From Lampris incognitus (taxonomy: Eukaryota > Chordata > Actinopteri > Lampriformes > Lampridae): a DNA stretch of 64,000 nucleotides. The position numbers and the translations under genes are program-made. Within the stretch, counting starts at the first letter, position 1; the number at the start of each line of letters is the position of its first letter. Location: the NCBI RefSeq assembly GCF_029633865.1, contig NC_079221.1, positions 97,001 to 161,000 on the forward strand. The letters run 5' to 3'. Positions 38,260 to 64,000 of this stretch are shown here, piece after piece. The notes beneath the pieces are model-generated. The model saw nothing but the letters and a program-made list of their open reading frames with translations. It searched no databases and was not told the DNA's origin.

Positions 38260-39312
38260 AGCAACAAAGACTGTGTACCTAAGCAGATAAAACCCTTATA
38301 CTAAACCTATCCCAACCCTTACAAAAATATGTAGAAAGAGCCAGCCGCTAATTATATCCGGACCACAAGCTCCGAAACACTCCGTATCTTCCACCAGAAA
38401 TACCATTGCCGTGGTTAGCTTGGCTCCTGCTAACAATTTATCCCACAAATAATACCATAGCAAAAGAGACTGTCTTGGCGGTTGCCAAGCTAATCACTGC
38501 AGTGGCATTTCCGATGGTAAGTACAGAGCTTCTCGGTATGCAAAATTTGGATAAAGTTAACGGACGGCTCTTTCAACACGTTTGGGTTGGGGTTTGTATT
38601 AGAGTAGAGGTTTTACCTGCTCAGGCAGCAACTCCCACAGAAAACCCCACAGCAAGAGACCAACTCTTCGCGGTAGCCAAGCTCCGGTTTTTCCACACTG
38701 AACATACTAGGTTAACTTTATGGTTAGGGTTGAATGCCAGAGCCAACACATGTCAACTGAGCACCTCCGCCAATGCCCATGTGCTGGATTAGAAATACCC
38801 CCAGGATTAGGGTTAGGGATATGGATAGAGTTTGATTGGTTAAGTCTAGGGGCAATTTGGGTGTTTATTCGTTACAACTGATCTCCCAGTCTTATATCTT
38901 GATTATTTTATCCCGTTTTAAACTTGAAAAGTTGTTGGTGGGGTTTGGAACAATACAAGTGTTTTTTGTGTTTTTTCAAATTGAACTTTTCTGCAATTGC
39001 AATTTAATGTTTTAAAAGTTAAGAGTAAGGTTTAGGGTTAGATCAAATTGATCAATTTCTGCACTTTTTTCCTTTTTACCACTCAGAACATGCCCCTTCT
39101 CTTGATGCTCCCATAAAAGGAACATTGAACGTCATCTAAAGCACAGAGCTAGTGATTAAACAACTTCTCTGTACCTGCTTAGCGCTCAGGAAGAAGCACC
39201 CCAGCTCATCATCATGGGTGGCGGGACTCACTTTAGAAAAACATTTCTCACGATAAAAACTAAAGAACTTATCCCCGAAAGTAGGATTAGGTTTGGCTAA
39301 ATGTAACGGATG
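38260..39312 (+). repeat. D-block 1 (reversed cassette + U segment + extension)
   Basis: The palindromic cassette at 38260-38577 comes first and is the reverse complement of the C cassette, including its unique loop (CTGCTAACAATTTATCCCAC) and arm-specific bases (ACTGCAGTGG now in the right arm). After one more monomer the U segment starts at about 38,726 (GGTTGAATGCCAGAGCC) in the same direction as in the C-blocks. Where C-blocks have GGAGC plus poly-A, this block has GGAACATTGAACG and about 220 bp of extra sequence unlike the monomer, ending near GGCTAAATGTAACGG. Confidence 0.87.
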
Positions 39313-42300
39313 GCTCTCTCTTTCGGTTAGGGTTGGGTCAAGGGCTTCATCTGCTCTGGCACACAATCCTACAAAGAATACCACAGCAAGACACCAACCT
39401 CATCGCAGCAGCCAAGATAACCACGGCAATGGTATTTCTGATGGAAAGTACTGAGCTTTTCAAAGTAAAAGTTTTGCATAAAATGAACGGAGAGCGCTTT
39501 CTACATGTTTCACTTGAAGTAAGGTTTGGGTTAGGACTTATCTGCTCAGTCACACAATCCCACAAAAAAAATACAACAGAATAATTCTTAGCAGTAGCCA
39601 GGCTATCTATGGCAAAGTCATTTCTGAAAGAAAGAACCAAGCTTCTTAGAGTGAAAGTTTTGGATAAAATTAATGGAGTACTCTTTCTATATCTTTCGGT
39701 TAGGGATGAGTTAGGCTAAGATTTTTATCTGCTCGGGCAAACAATCCAACACACAATACCACAGCAACAGCGGCTAACTCTTCGCAGTAGCAAAGCTCAC
39801 CATGGCAATGACATTTCTGATGGAACGTACCAAGCTTCTCGGAGTGACAGTTTTTCGATCTTATTAACGTATGCACTTTCTACAATGTTTCGGTTTGGTT
39901 GGCGCAAGGGATTTACCTGCTCAGGCAGACAATCCCACAGCAACAGAGAATTACTTCATCGTAGACAAGCTAACCACAGCAATGGCACTGCTCTTCTCAA
40001 GTACCGAGCTGCTGAGTGATACTTTCTGGGCAAAAAATTGACAGAGGCCGTTTCCACATGTTTCACTTAGGGTAAGGGTTTCATCAGCTGAGGCAGACAA
40101 TCGCACAGAGACTACCACAGCAACAAAGACTAACTCTTCGCAGTAGCCAAGCTCATTATGGCAATGGCATTTCTGATGAAAAGTACCAAGCTTCTCGGAG
40201 TGAAAGTTTTGGATAACATTGCTGAACAGCTCTTTCTCCATATTTCGCTTAGTTGTAAGGGTTTTATCAGCTCAGTCAGACAATCCCACAAACAAAATAC
40301 CACAACAGCGAATAATTCTTAGCAATAGCCAGGCTATCAATGGCAAAGTCATTTCTGAAAGAAAGAACCGAGCTACTTGGAGTGAAAGTTTTGGATAAAA
40401 TTAATGGAGGGCTCTTTCTACATTTTTCGATTAGGGATGAGTTAGGCTAAGATTTTAATCTGCTCAGGCAAACAATACCACAGCAATAGAACATGGAGTG
40501 ATAGGGTTAGGTAGTCGCATTGCTGAACGGCTCTTTCTACATATTTCGCTTAGTGTAAGGGTTTTATCAGCTCAGTCAGACAATCCCACAAAAAAATACA
40601 ACAACAAAGAATAATTCTTAGCAGTAGCCAGGCTATCTATGGCAAAGTCATTTCCGAAAGAAAGTACCAAGCTTCTCGGAGTGAAATCTGGATAAAATTA
40701 CTGGACCGCTCTTTCTACATGTTTCGCTAAGCGAAAGGGTTTTATCAGCTCAGACAAACAATCGCACAGAGAACACCACAGCAACAGAGAATGACTCTTC
40801 GTAGTAGCCAAGCTAACTGCAGCAATGGCATTCCTGATGGAAAGTGCCAAGCTTCACGAAGTGAAAGTTTTGTATAACATTAATGGACGGCACTTTCTAC
40901 ATGTTTCACTTACGGTAAGGGTTTTATCTGTTCAGGCGGACAAACCCACAGAAATACAACAACAACCGAGACTAACTATTCGTGGTAGCCAAGCTAACCA
41001 GGGCAATGGCATTTCTGATGGAAAGTACCAAGCTTTTTGGAGGGAAAGATTTGGGTAATATTAATGCCCGGCTTTTTTTTTTTTAACATATTTCGCTTAG
41101 TCTAAGGGTTTTATCCGTTTAGGCGGACAATCCCTCAGAAATACAACAGCAACAGAGACCAACTCTTCGTGGTAGCCAAGCTAACCACGGCAATGGAATT
41201 TCTGAAGCAAAGAATCGAGCTTCTTGGAGTGAATGTTTTGGATAAAATTAACAGACGGCTCTTTCTACATGTTTTGGTTGGGTTAGGGTAAGTGTGTTAC
41301 CTGTTTAAGCAGACAATCGCAGAAATACAACAGCAACAGGGACTAACTCTTCATTGTAGCCAAGCTAACTACGAAAATGGAATTTCTGATGGAAAGTACC
41401 AAGCTACTCGTAATAAAAGTTTTGGATAAAATCGCTGGACGGCTTTTTCTATATATTTCACTTAGTTGTAAGGGCATTATCTGCTCAGGCAGACAATCTC
41501 ACAGAGAATACCACAGCAACAGAGACTAACTCTTCGCAGTAGCGAAGCTAACAACGGCAATGGCATTTCTGAAGTTAAGAACCGAGCTTCTCGGACTGAA
41601 AATGTTGGATGAAATTAACGGAGTGCTTTCTAAATGTTTCACTTAGAGTAAGGGTTTTATCTGTTTAGGCGGACAATCCCTCAGAAATACAACAGCGACT
41701 AACTCTTTGTGGTAGCCAAGGTAACCACGGCAATGTCATTTTTGAAGGAAAAACCGAGCATCTTGGAGTGAAAGTTTGACAAAATTAACGGATGGCTCTT
41801 CTTACATGTTTTCGTTGGGTTAGGGTAAGTGTGTTACCTGTTTAAGCAGATAATCGCACAGAGAATACCATAGCAACAGAGACTATTCATTGTAACCAAG
41901 CGAACCACGGCAATGGCATTTATGATGTAAAGTAGAGGTACTCGTAAAAATTTTGAATAAAATTACCGAACGGCTCTTTCAACATATTTCACTTAGTATA
42001 AGGGGTTTATCAGCTCAGGCAGTCAATCGCACAGAGAATACCAGAGCAACGTAGACTAACTCTTTGCAGTAGCCAAGCTAACCACGGCAATTGCATTTCT
42101 GATGGCAAGTACCAAGCTTCTTGGAGTGAAAGTTTTGGATAAAACTAATGGACGGCTCTTTCTACATGTTTCACTTATGGTAAGAGTTTTATCAGCTCAG
42201 GCAGACAATCGCACAGAGAATATCACAGCAATAGAGACTAACTCTTCGCAGTAGCCAAGCTAACCACGCCAATTGCATTCCTGAGGGAAAGAACCAAGCT

Positions 42301-42408
42301 TCTCGTAGTAAAAGTTTTGGATAAAAAAATCAACGGATGGTCCTTGCTACATGTTTTGGTTGACGTAGTGTTTGAGTTTAGGGTCAAGTTTTTCTGCTCA
42401 GGCAGACA
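39313..42408 (+). repeat. Diverged monomer tract (about 17 copies)
   Basis: Direct monomers with many private changes and indels. Few copies keep the HindIII site. A GTTTTGGTTGGGTTAGGG type appears here and is typical of the D domain. I see nothing else in this stretch. Confidence 0.88.
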
Positions 42409-43080
42409 GTGCCCATGTGCTGGCTTAGCAATACCCCAATATGAGAGTTATGGAGATTGATGGGTTCAATTTGGATGTTTTTTCTTCTTTACAACTGATC
42501 TGCCACTGTCCTGTATCTTCATTAGTTTATCCCGTGTTAAACTTGAAAAATTGCTGGTGAGGTTTGGAGCATTATAAACGATTTTTTTAAAAAAAAATTT
42601 AGTTCTTTGCTATGGCAGTTTGTTTTTAGAGTTATGTTTCAATAAAATTGATAGATTTCTCCATTTTACCAATCAGAGGATGCATCTTGACTCAAAAGCA
42701 CAACTTGGGATTATCCACCGTTTATTCTGTTTTAAACTTGAAAAGTTGTTGGTGGGGTTTGGAGCATTATAAGTGATTCTTTTTTTTTTGGTTGAAGTTC
42801 ACTGCTATTGCAGTTTAATGTTTTTAGGGTTACGTTTAAAATAAAAGTAATTGATGGCTTTCTCAATTTTTTTCTTTTACCACTCAGAGCACGCTCTTTG
42901 CCTCAAAAGCACAGAGCTTGTAATCAAATGACTTCTCTGTACCTGCTTCATGCTCAGGCAGAAGCACCGCAGCTCATCATCGTGGGTGGCGGACTCGCAC
43001 TTAAAAAAATTTTCAAACCAAGAACGACAGAAATGACCGCTGAAAGTGTAGTCTTCTGAATCTTTTGGTTAGGATTAGGT
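42409..43080 (+). repeat. Two partial D-type U segments in tandem
   Basis: The first, 42,409 to about 42,698, starts inside U at GTGCCCATGTGCTGGC and breaks off after GACTCAAAAGCAC. The second, about 42,699-43,080, restarts at TTTAAACTTGAAAAGTTG and continues into the D extension (GTACCTGCTTCATGCTCAGG, GGGTGGCGGAC). Neither has a palindromic cassette. They look like products of unequal exchange within U. Confidence 0.8.
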
Positions 43081-43247
43081 TTGCATAATTTGACGGAAAT
43101 GGCATTTCTGATGGAAAGTACCGAGCTTCTCAAAATGAAAGTTTTGGATAAAATTAATGGCTGTCTCTTTCTACATCTTTTGGCCAGGGTTGGCGTGGGG
43201 TTAGCGAGGGTTTTTCCTACTCAAAAGTAGTTCCACAGACAATACCA
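43081..43247 (+). repeat. Single diverged monomer
   Basis: One monomer with the D-type TTTTGGCCAGGGTTGG variant, lying between the partial U segments and D-block 2. Confidence 0.85.
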
Positions 43248-44285
43248 CAGCAACAGGCAGTCTGCCTGAGCAGATAAAACTCTTATACTAAACCTATCCC
43301 AACCCTTACAGAAAGCCATCCGTTAATTATATCCAAACCTTAAGCTCCGTGACAGTATTTTCCGTCAAATACCATTGCCGTGGTTAGCTTGACTTCTGCT
43401 AAGAATTAATCCCACAAAGAACACCATAGCAACAGAGACTGTCTTGGCAGTTGCCAAGCTAACCATTGCAATGGCATTTCTGATGGAAAGTACAGAGCTT
43501 CGGATAAAAATCAACATATGGCTCTTTCAACACGTAAGGGTAGGGTTTGTGTTAAGGTAAAGTTTTTACCTGCTCAGGCAAAAAATCCCACAGCAACAGA
43601 GATTAACTCTTCATGTTAGCCACGCCAACCATGGCAATGGCATTTTTGACGGGAAATACTAGGCTTCTCCGAGTGAAAGGTAAGGGTTAGAATTGAATGC
43701 CAGAGCCAACACATGTCAACCAGGCGCCTCAACAATGCCAAAATACTGGCTTACAGATACACCCGGGTTTAGGGTTACGAATTTGGAGAGAGTTTGATGG
43801 ATTGGGTATAGGATCTGTTTGGAGGTTGTTTATTCTTTACACTTGATCCCCCATTGTCTTCCCTCTTGATTAGTTTACCCCGTTTTAAACTTGAAAAGTT
43901 GTTGGTGGGGTTTGCAGCAATACAAGTGGGTTTCTTTTATTGAATTGCACTTCTACAATTGTCATGTTTTTAGGGTTTGGACTAAGTTTGAGGGGTAGGT
44001 TTAAATAAAATTGATGAATTTCTACATTTTTGCACCTCCTTTTTACCACACAGAACATGCTCCTTCCTCTTGATAACTCCATAAAAGCAACACTGAACGG
44101 TCACCAAAAGCACAGAGTGAGTGATTAAACCACTTCTCTGTACCTGCTTCGCGGTCAGGGAGAAGCACCCCAGGCTCATCATGGTGGGTGGCGGGACTCA
44201 CACTTTAGAAAAACATTTCTCAAGATAAAAACTAAAGAAATTCTCTGAAATTAGTATTAGGTTTTGATAAACTCAACGGATTGCT
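43248..44285 (+). repeat. D-block 2
   Basis: Reversed cassette at 43248-43531, with a left arm shortened by deletion. U begins near 43,690 (AATTGAATGCCAGAGCC). The extension ends near 44,280. Closest in the loop to the C cassettes (AATCCCACAAAGAACACC). Confidence 0.85.
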
Positions 44286-45774
44286 CTATATCTTTTGGTT
44301 ACGGTTGGGGTAAGAGTTTTATCTGCTCTGGCAGACAATACCACAGCAATAGAGACCAACTCGTCGCAGTAGCCAAGCTAACCACGACAATGGTATTTCT
44401 GATGGAAAGTAGAGAGCTTCTCAGAGTAAAGGCTTTGCATAAAATTAACGGACAGCGCTTTCTACAAGTTTCGCTTGAGGTAGGATTTGGGTTAGGTTAA
44501 GGGTTTTATCTGCTCAGCCACACAATCCCAAAGAAAACACCACAGTAACAGAGACCAACTCTTCATAGTAGCCAAACTAACCACAACAAAGTCGTTTCTG
44601 ATGGAAAGTACCGAGCTTCTCGGAGTGATAGTTCCGGATGAAATTAACAGACGACTCTTTCTACATGTTTCACCCAAGGGTTTTATCTGCTCAGCCAGAT
44701 AATCCCAAAGAAATACCACAGCAACAGACAGTCTTGGTGGTAGCCAAGCCAACCTTGGCAATGGCATTTCTGATGGAGTAGCAAGCTTCTCGCAGCGATA
44801 GTTTTGGCTAAAATAAACGGATGGCTCTTTCTACATGTTTCGGTTGGTTTAAGTGTTTTACCCGCTCAGGCAGACAATCCCACACAAAATAGCACAGCAA
44901 CAGAGACTAACACTTCACGGTAGCCAAGCTAAACAGCAATGAAAATTCTGAAATAAAGTACCTACTTTCTCGTACTCGAAATTTTGGATCAAACTAACTG
45001 ACTTTCGTCATGTTTTGGTTGAGGTAGGGTTTTATCTGCTCAGGAAAACAATCTCACAGCAACAGAGACTAACCCTTCGCAGTAGCAAAGCTCACCACGG
45101 CAATGGCATTTCTGATGGAAAGTACCCAGCTTCTCGCAGTGACAGTTTTGGAACTTATTGACGTATGCTCTTTCTACAATGTTTCATTTTGGTTAGCCTA
45201 AGTGTTTTACCTGCTCAGGCAGACAATCCCACAGCAACAGAGACTAACTTCGTCGTAGACAAGCTAAACAGCAATGGCACTGCTCTTCTCAAGTACCGAC
45301 TTTCTGGGTGACAGTTTCGGAAAAAAAAATTTCACGGAGGCTGTTTCTACATGTTTCACTTAGAGTAAGGGTTTTATCAGCTCAGGCAGACAATGGCACA
45401 GAGAATACCACAGCAACAGAGACTAACTCTTCGTAGTAGCCAAGCTAACTACAGCAATGGCATTACTGATGGAAATTACCAAGCTTCTCGGAGTGAAAGT
45501 TTTGTATAACCTTAATGGACGGCTCTTTCTAAATGTTTCATTTATAGTAAGCATTTTATCTGTTCAGGCGGACAATCCCGCAGATATTACAATAGCAACA
45601 GAGACCAACTCTTCGTGGTAGCCAAGCTAACCACGGCAATGGCATTTTTGATGGAAAGTACCAAACTTCTCGGAGTAAAAGTTTTGGATAAAATTAATGG
45701 ACGCCTCTTTCTACATGTTTCGCTTAGTTGTAAGGGTTTTATCTGTTCAGGCGGACAATCCCGCAGAAATACAA
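44286..45774 (+). repeat. Diverged monomer tract (about 8 copies)
   Basis: Direct monomers in an order that is repeated after the LINE. The type with GTGATAGTTCCGGATG at about 44,607 recurs at 53,951, 56,847 and 61,367, which marks higher-order units of the D domain. Confidence 0.88.
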
Positions 45775-46830
45775 CAGCAAGAGACTGTCTGCCTAAGCCG
45801 ATAAAACCCTTATACTAAACCTAACCCTTACAAAAATATGTAGAAAGAGCCAGCCGCTAATTATATCCGAACCACAAGCTCCGAAACACTCAGTATCTTC
45901 CACCAGAAATACCATTGCCGTGGTTAGCTTGGCTCCTGCTAAGAATTAATCCCACAAATAATACCATAGCAACAGAGACTGTCTTGGAGGTTGCCAAGCT
46001 AACAATAGCATTTCTGATGGGAAGTAGAGCTTCTCGGTATGCAAGATTTGGATAAAATTAACAGGTGGCTCTTTCAACACGTTTGGGTTGGGTTAGGGTT
46101 TGTATTAGGGTAAAGGTTTTATCTGCTCAGGCAGCAAATCCCACAGTAAACCCCACAGCAACAGAGAACAACTCTTCGCGGTAGCCAAGCTAACCACAGC
46201 AACGGCATTTCAGATTGAAAATACTCGGTTAACTTTATGGTTAGGGTTGAATGCCAGAGCCAACACATGTCAACTGAGCACCACCGCCAATGCCCAAGTG
46301 CTGGACTAGAAATACCCCCAGAATTAGGGTTAGGGATATGGATAGAGTTTGATTGGTTAAGTCTAAGGGCAATTTGGGTGTTTATTCGTTACAACTGATC
46401 TCCCATCGTCTTATATCTTGATTACTTTTTCCTGTTTTAAACTTGAAAAGTTGTTGGTGGGGTTTGGAACAATACAAGTGTTTTTTGTTTGTCTTTTTTT
46501 TCAAATTGAACTTTTCTGCAATTGCAATTTAATTTTTTAAGAGTTAAGACTAAGGTTTAGATCAAATTGATGAATTTCTGCACTTTTTTTCCTTTTTACC
46601 ACTCAGAACATGCCCCTTCTCTTGATGCTCCCATGAAAGGAACATTGAACGTCATCTAAAGCACAGAGCTTGTGATTAAACCACTTCTGTGTACCCGCTT
46701 AGCGCTCAGGAAGAAGCACGCCAGCTCAACATCGTGGGTGGCGGGACTCACTTTAGAAAAACATTTCTCACGATAAAACTAAAGAACTTATCCCCGAAAG
46801 TAGGATTAGGTTTGGCTAAACGTAACGGAT
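45775..46830 (+). repeat. D-block 3
   Basis: Reversed cassette at 45775-46079. U from about 46,241, with a TTAGGGTTAGGG pair at about 46,325. The extension ends at about 46,830. Nearly the same as D-blocks 4 and 5. Confidence 0.87.
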
Positions 46831-47650
46831 GGCTCTATATCTTTCGGTTAGGGCAAGGCTTTCATCTGCTCTGGCACACAATCCTACAGAGAATACCACA
46901 GCAAGACACCAACTCGTCGCAGTAGCCAAGCTAACCACGGCAATGGTATTTCTAATGGAAAGTACTGAGCTTTTCAGAGTACAAGTTTTGCATAAAATTA
47001 ACGGAGAGAGCTTTCTACATGTTTCACTTGAGATAAGGTTAGGGCTTATCTGCTCAGTCAGACAATCCCACAAAAAAATAACACAACAGAGAATAACTTA
47101 GCAGTAGCCAAGCTATCCATGACAAAGTCATTTCTGATGGAAAATACTGAGCTTTTCCAACTGAAAGGTTTGGATAAAATTAAGATTGCTCTTTCTACAT
47201 CTTTCGCTTAGGGATGAGTTAGGCTAAGTGTGTTGTCTGCTCAGGCTAACAATACAACATCAACAGGGACTACCTCTTCGCAGTAGCATTTCTGAACATG
47301 AGTGATAGTTTCAGATAAAATTAACGGATTGCTCTTTCTAGATGTTTCGGTTGAGATAGGGTTAGGCTTTTACCTGCTAAGGCAGAAAATCTTAGAGAAT
47401 ACCAATGCAACAGAGAATAACTTCGATAGACAAGCTAACCACGATAATGGCATTTCAGATGGAATGTACCGAGCTGCTCGGAATAAAATCTTTGGATAAA
47501 ATTAAGGGTTGGGTCGTTCCACATCTTTTGGTTAGAGTAGAGTTACGGTAAGGGTTTTACCTGCTCAGGCAGCAAATCCCACAGTAAACCCCACAGCAAC
47601 AGAGACCAACTCTTCATAGTAGCCAAACTAACCACAGCAAAGTCATTTCT
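46831..47650 (+). repeat. Diverged monomer tract (about 5 copies)
   Basis: Direct monomers, a copy of 56.01-56.83 kb. The tract stops at GTCATTTCT, where the poly-T end of the LINE begins. Confidence 0.9.
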
Positions 47651-47903
47651 TTTTCTTTTTTTTTTTTTTAAATAAACTTCATTTTCCAATTTTCAAGTTT
47701 TTTTGGAACAGGTATACAAAGCACACGAACAACAACAAAAATAAACATGCAGTAATCCCCCCTCCCCCCCAAGGCTCAAAAAAAAAAGGACTACGCAGGG
47801 ATTTCTTATTCCAATTCCACATAACCATATCTTTGAAGAAAATATAAAGTTGTACACATATCTATAAGTATTTTCGTTACAACCAGGTAAATAAAAAGTA
47901 CAT
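47651..47903 (-). other. LINE 3' UTR and A-tail
   Basis: Non-coding end of the LINE. On the element strand it has a G-rich tract (47,757-47,770, seen here as a C-run with one T) close to the end and an interrupted poly-A tail. G-rich 3' UTR tracts are a known feature of many L1 elements. Confidence 0.7.
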
Positions 47904-49212
47904 TCAATAAAAGGGAAACCCTTCAATAAAGTCTATGAAAGGACTCCAGGTCAAAGTAAAGTTTTTGCGGGTTTTACATATTTTATATCGGAGCTTTTCT
48001 AAAAGTAGAAAGGACAGCACCTCCCTCAACCACTGCAAAAATGATGGCGCTTTATTTGACTTCCAGTTAAATAGGATAAGTCTGCGTGCTAGTAATGAGG
48101 CAAATGCTAGAGCATTTGCCTGCAAAGTTGTGACCTTACAGTTAGGGGGTGGTATGCCAAAGACGGCTGTGTGAAAATCGGGGTTTATGGTCTGTTTACA
48201 GATATGTGAGAATACATTAAATATCTGTCCCCAATAACTGTTGAGGGAGGGGCATGCCCAGAACATGTGTCCCACCGAGGCTGGACTATGACTGCACCTC
48301 GGACAGCTAGGGTCTGTGGTGGGAAAGATTCTGGCAAGCTTGTCCCCCGAGTAGTGAAGACGGTGAAGCACCTTAAACTGAATTAACCAATGTCGTATAC
48401 ACAATGAAGACGTATGAATACGAGTTAAGCTGTCCCGCCATGCCTCTTCAGAAAGCTCTACACCCAAATCTCTCTCCCATGCAGTTTTTGTTTTGTCCCA
48501 GGATATCTGTTTCAATCCCTGTATCAGTGTGTAAATTATAGAGACCCGTTTTTTCCCCAAAGGGATCCTTCTCTAGAATAACATCTAATTGGCTCCTGTT
48601 TGGCAGATACGGAAATGAGGGAAACACTTCCTTGGCAAAACTACGGATTTGAAGGTATCTAAAAAAATGGGATCTGGGTATGTAATGGTCTTTGGTAAGT
48701 GTTTCAAATGAGGCGAATGTTCCATCTTTAAATAGATCACAGAAAAACACCTGTCCATTTCTATGCCAAAGTTGAAATGTGTTATCTAACACAGATGGCA
48801 AGAAGAATTGATTATTTGCTACTGGAAAAAGACCGCTAGCATGCTTTAATCCAAAATGCCTCCTAAACTGGAGCCATATCCTAAGTGAGGCTTTAACCAC
48901 TGGGTTTGTTATTTGTATGTTACGATTATGTGGTAGTGGAGAGGTGAGTATCGGTAAAGGATTGGATAAGAGTTCCATGTGAACCCAATCTGTACCCTGT
49001 TGAGTCTCATATGTAAATGCCCAATGTAAAAGTTTTACAATGTTCGCAGCCCAGTAGTAACAAATAAAGTTAGGCAAACCTAATCCCCCTGTCTCCTTAG
49101 GGACCTCCAAGTATATTTTCTTCATCCTGGGGTTTGAATTGTTCCAGATGAATGATGAAATTAATCTATCTAATTGTTGAAAAGTTGTCTTAGGTATGAA
49201 TATGGGAATCAT
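47904..49212 (-). pseudogene. LINE ORF2, C-terminal part
   Basis: Two open pieces in different frames (48,448-49,212 and 47,904-48,560, overlapping by about 110 bp, so one frameshift lies in the overlap). The first has PKETGGLGLPNF, typical of the region just after the L1 reverse transcriptase. The second has a cysteine-histidine motif, C-x2-C-x8-H-x4-C (CPRC...GHMFWAC), the zinc-knuckle-like motif found at the end of L1-type ORF2 proteins. It ends at a stop at 47,904. Between 49,213 and 49,416 the same protein can be followed only through several stops. Confidence 0.85.
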
Positions 49213-49416: not shown

Positions 49417-50690
49417 CTAGAGTAGTCTATCAGTGTGGTTAATCGGAAAAAGCAAGCTCTTTGAATAATTTATCTTATAACCTGACAGGCGACCAAAGTT
49501 ATCCAGGGTAAGTAATAGTCTTGATATAGATTCTATTGGGTTGGATATATATAACAGGTCATCTGCATAAAGTGATACCTTATGCAATTTACCACCTCTT
49601 GAGATACCTTTAATGCCATCCTCTGCCCTAAGAGCTATAGCGAGTGGCTCAATTGCCAAATCGAACAAGTAAGGAGAGAGGCTGCAGCCCTGTCTGCAGC
49701 CCCTATGGAGTGAAAAATAATCAGAAATAATATTATTCGTCCGCACTGCGGCTGTCGGTGAGCAATACAATATTTTAACCCATGCTAGGAATGTGAAACC
49801 AAAGCCAAACCTTTCTAGAACAGCAAATAGATATTGCCATTCGATGCGGTCAAATGCCTTCTCAGCATCTAAAGAAATCTCTACTTCTGTCTGTTCTACG
49901 GAATGTGGTGTGTATAGTACATTAAATAGGCGGCGCATGTTATAGAACGACTGCCTGCCTGGTATAAAACCAGTTTGATCAGGGTTAACAACCGTTGGGA
50001 CAACAGTTTCAATACGGGTGGCCAAGATTTTTTGTAAGGATTTTGTAGTCGCAATTCAACAAGCTTATAGGACGGTAGGAGCCACACATTAGGGGATCTT
50101 TTTCTAAGTAACACTGATATGATTGCCTGCATCATAGTTTGGGGCAATTTCTGTTGGTTAAACATTTCCTGATACATCAGGTTAAGTATTGGTGCCAGCT
50201 TGGTAGCAAATTCTTTATACATTTCAATTGTGAAACCATCCGGACCTGGTGCTTTGTTGCTCTGCATGGATTTAATTGCTTGTATCACTTCCTCTGTTGA
50301 TATCTCTCTGTCTATCTGTGCTCTGTCTTCAAGGGCAATTTTTGGTGTAGTCAGACCGTCTAAAAAAGTTGAAATATGCAACAAGTCGCTGGGCAGTTTT
50401 GAACTATAAAGGGTAATATAAAATTGTTTAAACTGGTTATTGATGGTGTCAGGGTCGGCAGTCTTGACCCCAGCTGCTGTGCAAATTTCAGAAATAGTGT
50501 TAGCGGCTATGGACTGTCTAACCTGATGGGCTAATAGTTTTCCAGCTTTCTCTCCATACTCATAAAATGTCTGTTTTGATTTAAAGAATAATTGTTCTGT
50601 TTGTTTAATGGAGAGATTGTCGAATTCTGTTTTTAATAATTTTTTCTTATAAAGTTCAGGTGTTGGGGAATCGGCATATGAACGGTCCAC
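49417..50690 (-). pseudogene. LINE ORF2, reverse transcriptase part
   Basis: Two overlapping open pieces (49,896-50,690 and 49,417-50,025) in different frames. In order they show KAPGPDGFT, QTGFIPGRQS, the first catalytic block SLDAEKAFDRIEW, GCRQGCSLSPYLFDL and the catalytic YADDLLY, then GYKINYSKS. These are the standard blocks of a non-LTR reverse transcriptase of the L1 clade, which copies the element RNA at a nicked genomic target. A frameshift lies between GFIPGRQS-like sequence and the preceding piece. Confidence 0.9.
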
Positions 50691-50716
50691 TTCCGCTATA
50701 CTATGGGACAGTTCTG

Positions 50717-51660
50717 TTAGACGTTGTTTATGTTTCTCTCTCTCTCATGTGCTGTGTATGAGATTATTTGGCCTCTAAGGTAGGCTTTGAGAGCCTCCCA
50801 AACAATAGTTAGTGGCATATCCAGAGTATGGTTGAATTCCATAAAGATATCTATCTGCTGGGAGAGAAAAATTTTAAAGGAGTCCCTGGACAGTAATAGA
50901 GGATCAAATTGCCAGGTGCGTTGGGGTTTAGGGCAGTCTATGAAACCTATATCTAGATGTACAGGACTATGATCCGAAATAATACTATTATATTGGCTCC
51001 CCCTAACCATAGGAAGGACCCTACTATCCAGGAGAAAAAAAATCAATCCTTGAGTAAGAATGGTGCACTGGGGAAAAAAAGGAGTATTGTTTAGTAGTTG
51101 GGTTGTTTCTTCTCCAGGGATCAAAAAGAGAGTAGGATTCCATAAATGAATGAATAACAGCACCTGCCTTCGAAACTTTACTATTAGGTCTTGGGTTTGA
51201 TCTGTAATACACAATTAAAATCTCCCCCCAATATTAATCGGTAATTATTTAAGTCTGGGAGGGCTGCTATGAAACTAGAGAAAAAAAGTGGGTCATCCCA
51301 GTTTGGTCCATATACATTTGCCAGTGCCACAAGTGTACCATACAGGTTACCCGTCACTATCACATACCTTCCCCTGGGGTCAGAAATAGTCAGTTGTGGA
51401 ACGAATGGGATACCCTTCCTGATCAAGATGGCCGTGCCCCGCGTTCTGTTCTCATTCCTGGAACAGAAAATTTGTCCTATCCAAGCTTTTTTTAGTTTTG
51501 TGTGTTCACTTGACCGAAGGTGGGTTTCCTGTAAGAACATGACATCAGCTCTCAAAGATTTTAAATGTACAAAAACCCTACTACGCTTTACTGGATTGTG
51601 AATTCCCTTTATATTCCAGCTCAAAAAACGAAGATAACCTGTATTCTGAGTGTCAAACAT
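50717..51660 (-). pseudogene. LINE ORF2, endonuclease part
   Basis: Two open pieces (51,184-51,660 and 50,717-51,214), overlapping and frameshifted. From the probable start at 51,660 the first shows LSWNIKG, MFLQETHL, RGTAILIRK, NVYGPN and LGGDFN. The second supplies SDHSPVHL. These are the metal-binding and catalytic motifs of the AP-endonuclease-like domain of L1 elements, which nicks the target DNA. All key residues are visible, but no single frame holds them. A further frame change or break separates this piece from the reverse transcriptase part near 50,700. Confidence 0.9.
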
Positions 51661-52330
51661 TTTTTCTAAAAATGAAAAGAGAAAAGAAAAGAAAAAGTCC
51701 CTGCCTACTAGCTACAAAACAAAAACAGAGCCTTGAGAACCCATGCTGATCTACTAATTCCCTAGAGATCGCATCCCCCATTTCTAGTATAACCTGGCAA
51801 ATAACCATATAGAAACCCTCTAACAAACCCCAACCAGGGCGAACAGTGGTCTTGTTAAGATTATATTAAATCCAAAAAGTATTTATATACCTAAGAACTA
51901 TATATCAACACCCATATTAAAAAAAAAATTAAAAAATTAAAAAAAAAGAAAAATATATCTACACCCATATAACAGCAGTTATAATACAGTTCCTTTGTAG
52001 GTAAGTGACACTGACCTGGGTGTCGCCCTAGCAGTCGTCACCAAAGCACTGTTACGGGTCTCATAATAATTAGCATCCATACACATACATGCACACACAC
52101 GATAATAAAACAGAAAAATAGCTTTTTTAAATGGGCAGCAGGTATGAGACACTTATTAAATGAAAAATGTAACATTATCTGTGAGTCTCAAATTACAAAA
52201 GTTAAAGTAAATAGATAAAGTTAAACCATAACATTACCCTGTTGTCTTGGTGTCTTAGCTAGTTACTTCTGCTAGCTGTTGGCACTTGGCAGCTAATATC
52301 AATTAGCCGCCAATACCAGTTAGCCACAAA
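51661..52330 (-). other. LINE region upstream of ORF2, no clear ORF
   Basis: About 670 bp with A/T-rich runs (51,920-51,955) and a CA-rich stretch (52,080-52,100). No frame longer than a few tens of codons and no ORF1-like motif. It may be the inter-ORF spacer plus decayed ORF1. It ends exactly at the TA that starts the Tc1 element. Confidence 0.55.
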
Positions 52331-52332
52331 TA

Positions 52333-52360
52333 CACTGCTCAAAAAAATAAAGGGAACACC
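52333..52360 (-). repeat. Tc1 terminal inverted repeat (3' end)
   Basis: The terminal repeat of about 28 bp, beginning CACTGCTC and ending AAGGGAACACC. This is the transposase recognition end. Only this one of the pair is present. Confidence 0.85.
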
Positions 52361-52586
52361 TAAAAACATAATATGGACCTCGATGAATGAAATATTTCAG
52401 CTGAAAATCTTTATTTGACAGAGGAATGTGTTTAGAGCAAAATAACCTAAGAATGATCAATGGAAATCAAAATCATTAGCCCATTAAGGTCTGGATTCAG
52501 AATCATACTCAAAATCAAAGTGGAAAATGAGAACATAGGCTGATCCAACTTCTGTGGAAATTCTTCAAGACGATTCAAAATGAGGC

Positions 52587-53495
52587 TCAGTAGTGTGTGT
52601 GGCCTCCACGTGCCTGTATGCTCTCTCTACAACGTCTGGGCATGCTCCTGATGAGACGACGGATGGTCTCCTGGGGGATCTCCTCCCAGACCTGGATCAG
52701 GGCATCGGTCAACTCCTGGACAGTCTGTGGTGCGACATCGTGTTGGCGGATGGTACGAGACATGATGTCCCAGAGGTGCTCGATTGGATTCAGGTCTGGG
52801 GAACGTGCAGGCCAGTCCATAGCATCAATGCCCTCGACATACAGGAACTGCTGACACACTCTGGCCACATGAGGGCGAGCATTGTCATGCATGAGCAGGA
52901 ACCCAGGGCCCACTGCACCAGCATATGGTCTGACAATGGGTCTAAGGATCTCATCCTGGTACCTAATGGCAGTCATGGTACCTCTGGCTAGCACGTAGAG
53001 GTCTGTGCGGCCCTCCAAGGATATGCCTCCCCAGACCTTCACTGACCCACCGCCAAACCGGTCATGCTGGAGGATGTTGCAGGCAGCAGAACGTTCTCCA
53101 CAGCGTCTCCAGACTCTCTCACGTCTGTCACATGTGTTCAGTGTGAACCTGCTCTCATCTGTGAAGAGCACAGGGCGCCAATAGCGAATCTGCCAACCAA
53201 GATGTTCTCTGGCAAAGGTCAATCGGGCTGCACGGTGTTGGGCTGTGAGCACAGGCCCCAATTGTGGACGTCGGGCCCTCATACCATCCTCATGCATTCT
53301 GTTTCTCACTGTTTGAGCAGAAACCTGCACATTAGTGGCCTGTTGAAGGTCGTTTTGTAGGGCTCCGGCAGTGCTCCTCCTGTTCCTCCTTGCACAAAGG
53401 ACCAGATAGCGGTCCTGCTGCGGGGTTGTTGTCCTCCTGCGGCCCCCTCCACGGCTCCTGGTGTACTGGCCTGTCTCCTGGTACCTCCTCCAGAG
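52587..53495 (-). pseudogene. Tc1-like transposase, N-terminally truncated
   Basis: The reading frame is open from about 53,495 ([11 protein letters not shown]) to the stop at 52,587; the first internal ATG is at 53,330, giving 247 residues from there. The second helix-turn-helix region is present ([19 protein letters not shown]). The full DD34E catalytic core is visible: D in LFTDESRF, D in LMHDNARPH and, 34 residues on, E in [12 protein letters not shown]. The first DNA-binding helix-turn-helix and the initiator are missing; upstream the frame meets a TAA at about 53,504. The protein family cuts and pastes the element at TA sites. Truncation makes it a pseudogene despite the intact core. 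Confidence 0.9.
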
Positions 53496-53732
53496 CCCGA
53501 GGCTTTAGCGGCCTGGTCACTGCTGGATTTGTTTTTGCCCATCGCGTCTTCTAGATGATCGATATGCAAGTACAGGGTTGTGAGTCCGGTGTGCTAGCGC
53601 TTAAGTGTCGTGTGTGTTAAACCTAATTTATCTGTGTTTGATCTGAAAAGTTAAAATATTAATGAAAAGTTCGCCCTGATCAGGAGCTCAATCTAAAGAC
53701 GTCCTCACATGTTACTGCTCACCAGCACCCCC
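53496..53732 (-). other. Possible 5' leader and ORF1 start of the LINE
   Basis: About 240 bp between the truncated Tc1 and the resumption of satellite at 53,733. On the minus strand it has a leader of about 190 bp and then an ATG at 53,542 opening [16 protein letters not shown], a lysine/serine-rich start of the sort found in LINE ORF1 proteins, before running into Tc1 sequence. Position suggests it is the 5' end of the same LINE. An unrelated fragment is possible. Confidence 0.45.
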
Positions 53733-54949
53733 GGCAATGGTATTTCTGATGGAAAGTAGAGAGCTTTCTCAGAGTAAAAGCTTTGCATAAAATTAACGGA
53801 CAGCGCTTTCTACAGGTTTCGCTTGAGGTAGGATTTGGGTAAGGGTTTTATCTGCTCAGCCACACAATCCCAAAGAAAACACCACAGTAACAGAGACCAA
53901 CTCTTCATAGTAGCCAAACTAACCACAACAAAGTCGTTTCTGATGGAAAGTACCGAGCTTCTCGGAGTGATAGTTCCGGATGAAATTAACAGACGACTCT
54001 TTCTACATGTTTCACGTAAGAGTAAGGGTTTTATCTGCTCAGCCAGATAATCCCAAAGAAATACCACAGCAACAGACAGTCTTGGTGGTAGCCAAGCCAA
54101 CGGCATTTCTGATGGAGTAGCAAGATTCTCGCAGCGATAGTTTTGGCTGAAATAAACGGATGGCTCTTTCTACATGTTTCGGTTGGTTTAGTCTAAGTGT
54201 TTTACCTGCTCAGGCAGACAATCCCACACAAAATAGCACAGCAACAGAGACTAACACTTCACGGTAGCCAAGCTAAACAGCAATGAAAATTCTTAAATAA
54301 AGTACCGACTTTCTCGTACTCGAAATTTTGGATCAAACTAACTGACTTTCTTCATGTTTTGGTTGAGGTAGGGTTTGGTCAAGGGTTTTATCTACTCAAG
54401 AAAACAATCTCACAACAACAGAGACTAACCCTTCGCAGTAGCAAAGCTCACCACGGCAATGGCATTTCTGATGTAAAGTACCCAGCTTCTCAGAGTGACA
54501 GTTTTGGATCTTATTGACGTATGCTCTTTCTACAACGTTTCGTTTTGGTTAGCGTAAGTGTTTTACCTGCTCAGGCAGACAATCCCACAGCAACAGAGAC
54601 TAACTTCGTCGTAAGCCAAGCTAACCACAGCAATGGCACTGCTCTTCTCAAGTACTGACTTTCTGAGTGACAGTTTCGGAAAAAAATTTCACGGAGGCTG
54701 TTTCTACATGTTTCACTTAGAGTAAGGGTTTTATCAGCTCAGGCAAACAATCGCACAGAGAATACCACAGCAACAGAGACTAACTCTTCGTAGTAGCCAA
54801 GCTAACTACGGCAATGGCATTTCTGATGAAAAGTACCAAACTTCTCGGAGTAAAAGTTTTGGATAAAATTAATGGACGGCTAATTCTACATGTTCCGCTT
54901 AGTTGTAAGGGTTTTATCTGTTCAGGCGGACAATCCCGCAGAAATACAA
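53733..54949 (+). repeat. Diverged monomer tract (about 7 copies)
   Basis: Direct monomers that repeat 44.39-45.77 kb in order and type (AGTAGAGAGC variant first). The register restarts about one monomer earlier than where the left side of the LINE stopped. Confidence 0.9.
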
Positions 54950-56010
54950 CAGCAACAGAGACTGTCTGCCTAAAACAGATAAAACCCTTATACTAAACCT
55001 AACAAAAAGATGTAGTAAGAGCCAGCCGCTAATTATATCCGAACCACAAGCTCCGAAACACTCCGTATCTTTCACCAGAAATACCATTGCCGTGGTTAGC
55101 TTGGCTCCTGCTAAGAATTAATCCCACAAATAATACCATAGCAACAGAGACTGTCTTGGAGGTTGCCAAGCTAACAATAGCATTTCTGATGGAAAGTACA
55201 GAGCTTCTCGGTATGCAAGATTTGGATAAAATTAACAGATGGCTCTTTCAACACGTTTGGGTTGGGTTAGGGTTTGTATTAGGTTAAAGGTTTTATCTGC
55301 TCAGGCAGCAAATCCCACAGTAAACCCCACAGCAAGAGACCAACTCTTCGCGGTAGCCAAGCCAACCACGGCAACGGCATTTCAGATTGAAAATACTCGG
55401 TTAACTTTATGGTTAGGGTTGAATGCCAGAGCCAACACATGTCAACTGAGCACCACCGCCAATGCCCAAGTGCTGGACTAGAAATACCCCCAGAATTAGG
55501 GTTAGGGATATGGATAGAGTTTGATTGGTTAAGTCTAAGGGCAATTTGGGTGTTTATTCATTACAACTGATCTCCCATCGTTTTATATCTTGATTACTTT
55601 ATCCCGTTTTAAACTTGAAAAGTTGTTGGTGGGGTTTGGAACAATACAAGTGTTTTTTGTTTGTTGTTTTTTTTAATTGAACTTTTCTGTAATTGCAATT
55701 TAATGTTTTAAGAGTTAAGACTAAGGTTTAGCGTTAGATCAAATTGATGAATTTCTGCACTTTTTTTTCCTTTTTACCACTCAGAACATGCCCCCTCTCT
55801 TGATGCTCCCATGAAAGGAACATTGAACGTCATCTAAAGCACAGAGCTTGTGATTAAACCATTTCTCTGTACCCGCTTAGCGCTCAGGAAGAAGCACGCC
55901 AGCTCAACATCGTGGGTGGCGGGACTCACTTTAGAAAAACATTTCTCACGATAAAACTAAAAAACTTATCCCCGAAAGTAGGATTAGGTTTGGCTAAACG
56001 TAACGGATGG
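54950..56010 (+). repeat. D-block 4
   Basis: Reversed cassette at 54950-55253. U from about 55,411, with TTAGGGTTAGGG near 55,497. The extension ends near 56,010. Nearly the same as D-block 3. Confidence 0.87.
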
Positions 56011-59000
56011 CTCTACATCTTTCGGTTAGGGCAAGGCTTTCATCTGCTCTGGCACACAATCCTACAGAGAAAACCACATCAAGACACCAACTCGTCGCAG
56101 TAGCCAAGCTAACCACAGCAATGGTATTTCTGATGGAAAGTACTGAGCTTTTCAGAGTAAAAGTTTTGCATAAAATTAACGGAGAGCTTTCTACATGTTT
56201 CACTTGAGATAAGGTTTGGGTTAGGGCTTATCTGCTCAGTCAGACAATCCCACAAAAAAATAACACAACAGAGAATAACTTAGCAGTAGCCAAGCTATCC
56301 ATGACAAAGTCATTTCTGATGGAAAATACTGAGCTTTTCCAACTGAAATGTTTGGATAAAATTAACAGATTGCTCTTTCTACATTTTTCCGTTAGGGATG
56401 AGTTAGGCTAAGAGTGTTGTCTGCTCAGGCAAACAATACCACATCAACAGGGACTACCTCTTCGCAGTAGCATTTCTGAACATGGAGTGATAGTTTCAGA
56501 TAAAATTAACGGATTGCTCTTTCTAGATGTTTCGGTTGAGATAGGGTTAGGCTTTTACCTGCTAAGGCAGAAAATCTTAGAGAATACCAATGCAACAGAG
56601 AATAACTTCGATAGACAAGCTAACCACGGTAATGGCATTTCAGATGGAATGTACCGAGCTGCTCGGAATAAAATCTTTGGATAAAATTAAGGATTGGGTC
56701 GTTACACATCTTTTGGTTAGAGTAGAGTTACGCTAAGGGTTTCATCTGCTCAGGCAGACAATCCCACAAAAAAATACCACGGCAACAGAGACTAACTCTT
56801 CATAGTAGCCAAACTAACCACAGCAAAGTCATTTCTGATGGAAAGTACCGAGCTTCTCGGAGTGATAGTTCCGGATGAAATTAACAGATGACTCTTTCTA
56901 CATGTTTCACTTAAGAGTAAGGGTTTTATCTGCTCAGCCAGATAATCCCATAGAAATACCACAGCAACAGACAGTCTTGATGGTAGCCAAGCCAACCACA
57001 GCAATGGCATTTCTGATGGAGAGCAGCGAGCTTGTCGCAGCGATAGTTTTGGGTAAAATAAACGGATGGTTCTCTCTACATGTTTCGGTTGGGTTAGGGT
57101 AAGTGTTTTATCTGCTCAGACAGACAATCCCACAGCGACAGAGACTACCACTTCGCGGTAGCCAAGCTAAACACAGAAATGACAATTTTGAAATAAAGTA
57201 CCGACTTTCTCGTAGACACAATTTTGGATCAAATTAACTGATGACTTTCTTCATGTTTTGGTTGAGGTAGGGTTTGCGTAAGGGTTTTATCTGCTCAGGC
57301 AAACAATCTCACAGCAACAGAGACTAACTCTTCACAATAGCAAAGCTCACCATGGCAATGGCATTTCTGATGGAAAGTACTAGGCTTCTCGGAGTGACAG
57401 TTTTGGATCTTATTTAAATATGCTCTTACAACAATGTCTCGATTTGGTTAGCGTAAGGGTTTTACCTGCTCAGGCAGACAATCCCACAGCAACAGAGGCT
57501 AACTTCGCCGTAGCCAAGCAAAACAGCAATGGCACTGCTCTTCTCAAGTACCGAGCTTCTGGGTGATAGTTTCAGGAAAAAATTCACGGAGGCTGTTTCT
57601 ACATTTTTCAGTTAGGGTAAGGGTTTTATCAGCTCAGGTAGACAATCGCACGAAGAATACAACAGCAACAGAGAATAACTCTTCGCAGTAGCCAAGCTAA
57701 CCACGGCAAGGGCATTTCTGATGGAAAGTACCAAGCTTCTCGGAGTGAAAGTTTTGGATAAAATTACTGGACGGCTCTTTCTACATGTGTCACTTATGGT
57801 AAGGGTTTTATCAGCTCAGGCAGACAATCGCACAGAGGATACCACAGCAACAGAGACGAGCTCTTCGTGATAGCCAAGCTAACCACAGCAATGGCATTTC
57901 TGATGGAAAGTACCAAGCTTATCGGAGTGAAAGTTTTGGATAACATTAATGGACGGCTTTTCTACATATATCGTTTAGTGTAAGGGTTTTGTCAGCTCAG
58001 GCAGTCAATCGCACAGAGAATACCACAGCAACAGAGACTAACTTCGTAGTAGCCAAGCTAACTACGGCAATGGCATTACTGATGGAAAGTACCAAGCTTC
58101 TCCGAGTGAAAGTTTTAGATAACATTAATGGACGGCTCTTTCTACATGTTTCACTTATGGTAGGGGTTTTACCTGTTCAGTCGGACAATCCTGCAGAAAT
58201 ACAACAGCAGCAGACTCTGTCGTAGCCAAGCTAACCACGGCAATGCCATTTCTGATGGAAAGTACCAAACCTCTCAGAGTATACGTTTTAGATAAAATTA
58301 ATGGACGACTCTTTCTACATTTTTCGCTTAGTTGTAAGGGTTTTATCAGCTCAGCCAAACAATCACACAGAGAATACCACAGCAACAAAGTCCAACTCTT
58401 CGCAGTAGCCAAGCTGACCACGGCAATGGCATTTCTGAAGGAAAGTACCAAGTTTCTTGGAGTAAGTTTTGGATAAAATTAATCGACGGCTCTGTCTACA
58501 TGTTTCGCTTAATTGTAAGGGTTTTACCTGTTCAGTCAGACAATCGCACAGAGAATACCACAGCAACAGAGACCAACTCTTCGCAGTAGTCAAGCTAACC
58601 ACCGCAATGGCATTTCTGATGGAAAGTACCAAGCTTCTCGGAGTGAAAGTTTTGGTTAACATTAATGGACGCCTCTTTCTACATGTTTCACTTATGGTAA
58701 GGGTTTTACCTGTTCAGTCGGACAATCCTGCAGAAATACAACAGCAGCAGACTCTGTCGTAGCCAAGCTAACCACGGCAATGCCATTTCTGATGGAAAGT
58801 ACCAAACCTCTCAGAGTATACGTTTTAGATAAAATTAATGGACGACTCTTTCTACATTTTTCGCTTAGTTGTAAGGGTTTTATCAGCTCAGCCAAACAAT
58901 CACACAGAGAATACCACAGCAACAAAGTCCAACTCTTCGCAGTAGCCAAGCTGACCACGGCAATGGCATTTCTGAAGGAAAGTACCAAGTTTCTTGGAGT

Positions 59001-59461
59001 AAGTTTTGGATAAAATTAATCGACGGCTCTGTCTACATGTTTCGCTTAATTGTAAGGGTTTTATCAGCTCAAGCAGTCAATCGCACAGAAAATACCACAG
59101 CAACAGAGAAAAACTCTTTGTAGTAGCCAAACTAACTACGGCAATGGCATTCCTGATGGAAAGTACCAAGCTTCTCGGAGTGAAAGTTTTGGAAAACATT
59201 AATGGACAGCTCTTCTTACATGTTTCGCTTAGATGTAAGGGTTTTACCTGTTCAGTCAGACAATCGCACAGAGAATACCACAGCAACAGAGACTAACTCT
59301 TCGCAGTAGTCAAGCTAACCACCGCAATGGCATTTCTGATGGAAAGTACCAAGCTTCTCGGAGTGAAAGTTTTGGTTAACATTAATGGACGCCTCTTTCT
59401 ACATGTTTCACTTATGGTAAGGGTTTTATCTGTTCAGGCGGACAATCCCGCAGAAATACAA
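56011..59461 (+). repeat. Diverged monomer tract (about 19 copies)
   Basis: Direct monomers. The first 820 bp repeat 46.83-47.65 kb and here run on without the LINE. From about 57.6 kb the monomers are closer to the homogenised type again. A three-monomer block is duplicated near 58.18 kb. Confidence 0.9.
58180..59057 (+). repeat. 537-bp (three-monomer) tandem duplication
   Basis: Sequence from about 58,180 to 58,520 reappears at 58,717 to 59,057, offset 537 bp, with rare words such as CAGCAGCAGACTCTGTCG, CAAACCTCTCAGAGTATACG and GAAAGTACCAAGTTTCTTGG. I saw no difference between the two copies. Confidence 0.88.
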
Positions 59462-60520
59462 CAGCAACAGAGACTGTCTGCCTAAGCAGATAAAACCCTT
59501 ATACTAAACCTAACCCAATCCTTACAAAAAGATGTACAAAGAGCCAGCCGCTAATTATATCCGAACCACAAGCTCCGAAACACTCAGTATCTTCCACCAG
59601 AAATACCATTGCCGTGGTTAGCTTGGCTCCTGCTAAGAATAAATCCCACAAATAATACCATAGCAACAGAGACTGTCTTGGAGGTTGCCAAGCTAACAAT
59701 AGCATTTCTGATGGGAAGTACAGAGCTTCTCGGTATGCAAAATTTGGATAAAATTAACAGACGGCTCTTTCAACACGTTTGGGTTAGGGTTTGTATTAGG
59801 GTAGAGGTTTTACCTGCTCAGGCAGCAAATCCCACAGAAAACCCCACAGCAAGAGACCAACTCTTCGCGGTAGCCAAGCTAACCACGGCTCCGGCATTTC
59901 ACACTGAACATACTAGGTTAACTTTATGGTTAGGGTTGAATGCCAGAGCCAACACATGGCAACTGAGCACCTCCGCCAATGCCCAAGTGCTGGACTAGAA
60001 ATACCCCCAGAATTAGGGTTAAGGATATGGATAGAGTTTGATTGGTTAAGTCTGGGGGCAATTTGGGTGTTTATTCGTTACAACTGATCTCCCATCGTCT
60101 TATATCTTGATTACTTTATCCCGTTTTAATCTTGAAAAGTTGTTGGTGGGGTTTGGAACAATACAAGTGTTTTTTGTTTGTTTGTTTTTTTTCAAATTGA
60201 ACTTTTCTGCAATTGCAATTTAATGTTTTAAGAGTTAAGACTAAGGTTTAGATCAAATGGATGAATTTCTGCACTTTTTTTTCCTTTTTACACTCAGAAC
60301 ATGCTTCTTCCTCTTGATGCTCCCATAAAAGGAACATTGAACGTCATCTAAAGCACAGAGCTTGTGATTAAACAACTTCTCTGTACCCGCTTAGCGCTCA
60401 GGAAGAAGCACCCCAGCTCATCATCGTGGATGGCGGGACTCGCTTTAGAAAAAAATTTCACGATAAAAACTAAAGAACTTATCCCCGAAAGTAGGATTAG
60501 GTTTGGCTAAACGTAACGGA
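59462..60520 (+). repeat. D-block 5
   Basis: Reversed cassette at 59462-59775. U from about 59,930, where the telomere-like pair reads TTAGGGTTAAGG. The extension ends near 60,520. The right-most complex block of the array. Confidence 0.87.
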
Positions 60521-63999: not shown

Positions 64000-64000
64000 T

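What the first reader, a model, noticed from the sequence alone, without database searches (positions are those of the whole stretch)
38260..59775. A palindromic cassette occurs in both orientations, with shared breakpoints
In thirteen C-blocks (1.96-34.65 kb) a cassette of about 315 bp follows the U segment: inverted monomer, loop, direct monomer. In five D-blocks (38,260; 43,248; 45,775; 54,950; 59,462) the whole cassette is reversed and precedes U. The reversal is not just a loop flip. Arm-specific bases travel with it: CTGCAGTGG plus GGCAACCGCC is in the left arm in C and, reverse-complemented, in the right arm in D; the GACACTC..GGAGC arm does the opposite. The outer breakpoint word AGAGACTGTCTGCC is the same, read on opposite strands. 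The U segment itself is not inverted. One ancestral unit with cassettes on both sides of U, or repeated inversion through the arms, would both explain this. I know of no described satellite with this arrangement.
Basis: partly seen in the sequence, partly recalled or inferred. Interest (0 to 1): 0.8.

Follow-up and report, generated by a model that had tools for sequence, protein, structure and literature searches.

The report
Twice-inverted repeat inside U3-bearing satellite
In a long stretch of repeated DNA, one repeat unit was flipped once in what look like older copies and, as part of a larger piece, flipped again in younger copies that then multiplied, next to a decayed relative of the U3 small RNA gene; it is a readable record of how such repeats rearrange, not a new kind of machine.

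Summary
A monomer profile finds 18 long inverted monomers, 13 after U (C) and 5 before U (D). C cassettes match reverse-complemented D cassettes at 85.5%, against 71.3% un-reversed. In a tree with 83 ordinary monomers, the direct arm of C groups with the inverted arm of D (100/100) and the inverted arm of C with the direct arm of D (99/95). Both breakpoints are shared.
D is an in-place inversion of one monomer segment (150-168 bp): flipping it back rejoins the array at both ends. C carries that inversion inside a larger inverted piece (about 350-365 bp, parts of three monomers), so its 'direct' arm has been turned twice. C and D lie on two sides of one branch (100/99), so one reorientation suffices. 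D is probably the older form (inference).
New variant of a known kind of satellite.

The parts
38272..38439 (-). D1: inverted monomer segment (in-place inversion, 168 bp)
43259..43408 (-). D2: inverted monomer segment (150 bp); cassette with a U on both sides
45786..45948 (-). D3: inverted monomer segment (163 bp)
54963..55120 (-). D4: inverted monomer segment (158 bp)
59475..59642 (-). D5: inverted monomer segment (168 bp)
2349..2664 (+). C1 cassette: inverted arm, inner junction, twice-inverted arm, outer junction
4727..5032 (+). C2 cassette
6375..6680 (+). C3 cassette
8371..8680 (+). C4 cassette
10529..10838 (+). C5 cassette
12509..12819 (+). C6 cassette
15194..15505 (+). C7 cassette
16480..16785 (+). 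C8 cassette
17934..18246 (+). C9 cassette
19396..19707 (+). C10 cassette
29797..30105 (+). C11 cassette
32302..32613 (+). C12 cassette
34285..34597 (+). C13 cassette
35227..35290 (+). orphan half-cassette: C outer junction and flank after an ordinary monomer
36417..36480 (+). orphan half-cassette
37058..37120 (+). orphan half-cassette
39078..39290 (-). U3 snoRNA-derived end of the D1 U segment
   Evidence: 98.9 bits
42879..43055 (-). U3 snoRNA-derived end of the U segment left of the D2 cassette; U3-like 5' end best kept, part of the 3' half missing
   Evidence: 64.2 bits
44045..44263 (-). U3-derived end of the D2 U segment
   Evidence: 91.1 bits
46598..46809 (-). U3-derived end of the D3 U segment
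   Evidence: 89.8 bits
55776..55987 (-). U3-derived end of the D4 U segment
   Evidence: 83.3 bits
60289..60500 (-). U3-derived end of the D5 U segment
   Evidence: 96.5 bits
1..37200 (+). homogenised C layer of ~182-bp monomers (137 full ones, mean identity of sampled pairs 92.4%)
37300..61815 (+). diverged D layer of the same monomer (65 full ones, mean identity of sampled pairs 79.8%), broken by transposons

Best explanation
This is a higher-order satellite of ~182-bp monomers with a U segment (ending in a degenerate U3 snoRNA copy) set into one monomer. Step 1 (anatomy shown): a segment of one monomer, positions ~16-171, was inverted in place about a monomer and a half left of U; this is the D form. 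Step 2 (anatomy shown, order inferred): a larger stretch, from position ~105 of the monomer left of it to ~128 of the monomer right of it (350-365 bp as it stands), was turned as a block, by inversion or by reverse copying (first rival), so the once-inverted monomer reads forward again between two inverted neighbours; this is the C form. At that event or about then U lost all but the last ~45 nt of U3 and gained a run of A at the joint. Step 3 (inferred): the C unit was amplified by unequal exchange into the young homogeneous layer, leaving the D layer as an older, decayed edge. Moving from 'before U' to 'after U' needs no jump: in a tandem array a cassette lies between two U segments, as seen directly at 42.4-44.3 kb.
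For: Un-flipping 150-168 bp in D gives the expected monomer joints (AGAGAC|TAATTCTTAGCAG and GGCAGACA|ATCCCACA in D3 and D4; variants of them in D1, D2, D5). It raises the best array match in 5 of 5, and beats six shifted control flips as well in 4 of 5. Flipping only the inner segment of C turns arms and flank into one continuous inverted stretch, beating as-is and six shifted flips in 13 of 13. Arm tree: CR+DL 100/100, CL+DR 99/95. 36 of 36 arms are nearer to a partner arm than to any of 202 ordinary monomers. One C/D split at 100/99, 17 fixed differences and 3 shared polymorphisms among 99 variable columns. C layer 92.4% vs D layer 79.8% identity. U3 matches span the model in the D layer; only the 3' end aligns in the three C copies aligned. 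Three half-cassettes with a crossover between an ordinary monomer and the twice-inverted arm. Among 13 C blocks U and cassette distances correlate, r 0.44, 2 of 5000 permutations as high.
Against: D3: one shifted control flip scored higher (333.7 vs 325.5 bits). The second event is not clean: positions ~107-128 occur at both of its ends in opposite orientation, some 35 bp of the left flank monomer and most of U3 are missing, and a run of A sits at the joint. The order D then C rests on parsimony and layer divergence, not on an outgroup. C's ~41-bp outer flank is not decisively closest to D2 or to any one D flank. Within DL the tree does not hold D together (DL2 sits with CR, support 91/0), though the whole-cassette tree does. 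Only one locus was seen; it could not be compared with its own genome (genome search did not complete).
Confidence: 0.75

Rival explanations
1. A variant of step 2: template switching at a stalled replication fork (FoSTeS/MMBIR type, recalled terms). The C cassette is an inverted copy of a D cassette pasted after a broken U, not an inversion; the D copy was later lost from those units by unequal exchange.
For: Positions ~107-128 in opposite orientation at both ends, a run of A and loss of U3 at the joint, a gap in the flank (alignments).
Against: No C block keeps a D-oriented cassette as well (one long inverted hit per C block), so a separate loss is needed.
Confidence: 0.4
2. C is older: a large inversion and an inner re-inversion made C, and D arose by turning the large piece back.
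For: The trees are unrooted and allow it.
Against: Needs three events instead of two and a return to exact monomer phase in D; the D layer is more diverged; U3 is found at full span only in the D layer.
Confidence: 0.12
3. The cassette flips repeatedly by recombination between its inverted arms.
For: The arms are inverted repeats at about 70% identity and can pair in a predicted fold (z -6.8 and -5.3, one C and one D cassette). Three polymorphisms are shared by C and D.
Against: Such a flip turns the stretch between the arms; here arm identity is exchanged as well. C and D are two sides of one branch (100/99), with 3 shared polymorphisms among 99 variable columns.
Confidence: 0.05
4. Independent inverted monomers in C and D.
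For: Inversions are reported as part of the disorder of divergent alpha-satellite layers (PMC9549924, passages).
Against: Same inner breakpoint in 18 of 18 and reciprocal arm clades.
Confidence: 0.01

Closest known systems
Tribolium madens TmSat2, and the T. brevicornis major satellite cited there (PMC13081366, passages read)
   Same: Satellite units holding inverted copies of one ancestral subunit, giving a long imperfect dyad; conserved inversion sites; a 'cassette' inside a larger satellite.
   Different: The passages read describe no pair of opposite forms of one unit tied by shared breakpoints; here one short cassette per block lies in an otherwise direct array, in two orientations. The T. 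brevicornis unit (1061 bp, ~470-bp inverted segments) is known to me here only from that citation.
Primate alpha-satellite arrays with divergent layers and inversions (PMC9549924 and PMC10312506, passages read)
   Same: Homogeneous array beside diverged, transposon-hit layers with inversions.
   Different: Inversions with sizes in those passages are 1.0-3.2 Mb, or are counted as disorder; here they are one to two monomers long and were amplified with the unit.
5S rDNA higher-order arrays of Esox (PMC5437419, passages read)
   Same: Tandem array with a small-RNA gene and higher-order structure; palindromes are discussed in the paper.
   Different: 5S genes called potentially functional in its title; here the U3 copies are degenerate and the palindrome is about one monomer.
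snRNA-headed SINEs and snRNA retropseudogenes (recalled; the U6 pseudogene paper PMC4476161 was seen only in a listing)
   Same: A small RNA sequence inside a repeat, with an A-rich stretch after its 3' end (read by eye).
   Different: All six copies here sit in one satellite; I saw no target-site duplication by eye, and dispersed copies could not be sought.

Membership tests
Higher-order-repeat satellite DNA | Long head-to-tail array of one monomer | tested here: met
   186.5 copies of a 180-bp period at 261-33898, 69% matches; 296 profile hits
Higher-order-repeat satellite DNA | Diverged monomers repeated in a fixed order as larger units | tested here: met
   Monomers at equal places of the D3 and D4 blocks pair in the tree: 44717/54065, 45055/54412, 45230/54586, 45593/54766
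Satellite with intra-unit dyad (TmSat2 type) | Inverted subunits able to pair over most of the unit | tested here: met
   For the cassette: one C and one D cassette folded as single-stranded DNA, z -6.79 and -5.29, 0 of 100 shuffles as good; the cassette is only part of each block, and folding in cells is untested
Satellite with intra-unit dyad (TmSat2 type) | Sequence kinship with Tribolium satellites | not tested
   No Tribolium sequence was compared
U3 snoRNA gene | Match to the U3 covariance model over its length | tested here: met
   Six matches spanning positions 1-219, 64-99 bits, gathering score 34; one of the six skips 46 model positions
U3 snoRNA gene | Intact 5' domain and boxes, and promoter upstream | tested here: inconclusive
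   5' domain altered in the five D copies; the copy at 42879 keeps AAGACUACACUUUCAG but lacks part of the 3' half. Monomer-like sequence resumes near the 5' end (by eye); no promoter scan was run. Box names and roles are recalled
U3 snoRNA gene | Expression | not testable with these tools
   No RNA data
Centromeric satellite | CENP-A chromatin | not testable with these tools
   No chromatin data

The most novel reading that the evidence does not exclude
The second turn was the founding event of the young layer: the re-inverted, hairpin-prone cassette next to a broken U3 promoted amplification (by fork stalling or excision), which is why each of the 13 C blocks carries one and the twice-inverted arm has recombined with ordinary monomers.
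Probability: 0.1. Interest if true: 0.75.

Novelty: new variant of a known kind. Interest (0 to 1): 0.45.

Why it matters
Inversions inside satellites are usually seen only as end states. Here both states, shared breakpoints and recombinant half-cassettes lie in one 64-kb window, so the order of events and the birth of a young array from an older layer become testable. The U3-like sequence is a marker that is cut down at the transition. If the assembly holds, this is a compact natural record of how inverted monomers arise and spread; it is not evidence of a new function.

Tried and rejected
Independent inversions: rejected. Repeated flipping: not needed. A cassette directly on both sides of a U: not found in the window. 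Assigning C's outer flank to one D flank: undecided; for the four C copies tested of 13, the best matches outside C are the three half-cassettes, then D2 and other D-layer monomers close together. Constraint on U3: the U3 part is less diverged than the U spacer in the four comparisons with D2 (Fisher p 0.005 to 0.03, not independent), not significantly different in the other six, and more diverged in two of those; inconclusive. U3 in C by covariance model: no U3 match at E up to 1 in 1-37500; the 15 matches there were MIR4227 and vertebrate telomerase RNA, all below gathering score. The ~45-nt remnant rests on alignment with D. Folding of the U3 copy at 42879-43055 as RNA: no better than shuffles (z 0.55). 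Two exact-pattern scans of viral contigs for kin: no match.

Papers, listings only unless said elsewhere: 'satellite DNA', 'U3 snoRNA', 'fish', 'tandem repeat' together: 0 papers. 'U3 snoRNA' with 'satellite DNA': 5 papers, none on a U3-bearing satellite by title or start of abstract. 'inverted monomer' with 'satellite': 2, both on human macrosatellites. 'nested inversion' with 'satellite DNA': 9, 8 listed, none of this kind by title. Broader listings: 19 papers; 15 of 133 listed; 15 of 50; 12 of 19; 8. The library lacks most subscription papers, so absence is weak.
Full report
What is there. The window holds a satellite array of ~182-bp monomers on the plus strand from 1 to about 61.8 kb, broken by transposons. 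Of 202 ordinary full monomers, the 137 left of about 37.3 kb are 92.4% alike (794 sampled pairs), the 65 to the right 79.8% (787 pairs): a homogenised layer and a diverged one.

Same cassette, opposite orientation. The cassette cores (280-315 bp) are 96.3% alike within C, 92.3% within D, 85.5% between C and reverse-complemented D, and 71.3% between C and D as they lie; a cassette against its own reverse complement gives 69-70%. In a tree of 36 arms and 83 ordinary monomers (18 of the 137 left ones, all 65 right ones), the direct arm of C joins the inverted arm of D (100/100), and the inverted arm of C joins the direct arm of D (99/95). Against all 202 ordinary monomers, 36 of 36 arms are closer to a partner arm.

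The D form is an in-place inversion. In D the array runs in phase up to AGAGAC, continues with the reverse complement of monomer positions ~171 to ~16, then goes on in phase at ATCCCACA. Turning this segment of 150-168 bp back gives ordinary monomer joints at both ends. The best array match rises in 5 of 5; it beats all six flips shifted by 20-60 bp in 4 of 5, while in D3 one shifted flip scores higher, 333.7 against 325.5 bits.

The C form holds the D form, turned. In C the same two junctions are read on the other strand (inner word 13 of 13 C and 5 of 5 D, 0.03 expected; outer word in 13 of 13 C at up to 2 mismatches). Beyond the outer junction C carries about 13 bp and then some 40 bp more of monomer sequence that is inverted too, with a gap of some 35 bp between. 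Flipping only the inner segment makes arms and flank one inverted stretch: 163-181 bits against 81-90 as it lies and at most 143 for shifted flips, in 13 of 13. So in C a larger piece lies inverted around a monomer already inverted once. D needs one event, C two. C and D lie on the two sides of one branch (100/99); of 99 variable columns 17 are fixed differences and 3 are shared polymorphisms. One reorientation is enough; D first is the shorter path (inference).

Why it changes sides of U. In D, U interrupts a monomer about one and a half monomers right of the cassette; in C it lies left of it. In a tandem array a cassette lies between two U segments. At 42.4-44.3 kb this is seen directly: a left-truncated U with U3 (42,407-43,055), one partial monomer, the D2 cassette (from 43,259), and the next U (from about 43,700). 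A local turn in such a place, with array growth on the right, gives the C order without moving anything (inference).

U ends in a U3 relative. Rfam finds six U3 snoRNA matches, minus strand, 64 to 99 bits, at the right ends of U segments in the D layer. The 5' domain of the five D copies is altered; the copy at 42,879-43,055 keeps the U3 5' end best but has lost part of the 3' half. Monomer-like sequence resumes near the 5' end (by eye). I read these as degenerate copies that came in once and were amplified (inference). In the three C copies aligned (C1, C3, C13 of 13) about 45 nt of the U3 3' end remain, followed by a run of A and the cassette; all 13 C cassettes follow such a remnant in the alignment. 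The covariance model does not find U3 in C.

Recombinants. Three further copies of the C outer junction follow ordinary monomers at 35.23, 36.42 and 37.06 kb. The change from ordinary monomer to cassette arm lies around the shared stretch TAAGGGTTTTAT in all three. They show exchange between the twice-inverted arm, which reads forward, and the array. Among the 13 C blocks, U distances follow those of the upstream 180 bp (r 0.69), cassette distances those of the downstream 180 bp (r 0.75), and U with cassette gives 0.44: amplified together, then reshuffled (inference).

How it works. No function is shown. One C and one D cassette, folded as single-stranded DNA, fold better than 100 of 100 shuffles, so hairpins or cruciforms are possible, but nothing here shows that they form. 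The most likely account is mutational: one inversion, one larger turn by inversion or reverse copying, then unequal exchange.

Novelty. Satellites with inverted subunits are known from Tribolium (PMC13081366, passages); inversions in alpha-satellite arrays and layers are known (PMC9549924, PMC10312506, passages). Two orientations tied by nested breakpoints, and U3 within a satellite, I did not find in the searches named under Tried and rejected. The organism was not identified: the genome search did not complete, and a fish-like impression rests on transposon types and recall.

Noticed in passing
39078-39290, 42879-43055, 44045-44263, 46598-46809, 55776-55987, 60289-60500 (minus): Six U3 snoRNA-like sequences (RF00012) ending the U segments of the D layer; degenerate, possibly one captured copy amplified with the satellite.
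   Followed up: partly
35227-35290, 36417-36480, 37058-37120: Three half-cassettes: C outer junction after an ordinary monomer, apparently a recombination product.
   Followed up: yes
47650-51711 (minus): LINE with endonuclease and reverse transcriptase pieces in several frames (PF03372, PF00078) inserted in a monomer, T-rich at its left end.
   Followed up: partly
52330-53640 (minus): Tc1-like transposon with a 305-aa open transposase frame (PF01498, PF13358) next to the LINE; ends set by eye.
   Followed up: partly
61830-64000: Retroelement-like sequence at the array end with an open integrase piece (PF00665) on the minus strand, running off the window.
   Followed up: partly
13268-13606: About 340 bp of sequence in the C layer found once in the window; starts TG and ends CA by eye, perhaps a solo LTR.
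   Followed up: no
42640-42740: By eye, a second truncated U3 3' end followed by U sequence again, so the U segment left of D2 seems to hold an internal duplication.
   Followed up: no
21798-28400: Runs of monomer hits with matching scores about 3.57 kb apart (21798 and 25367 onward) suggest a recent large duplication.
   Followed up: no
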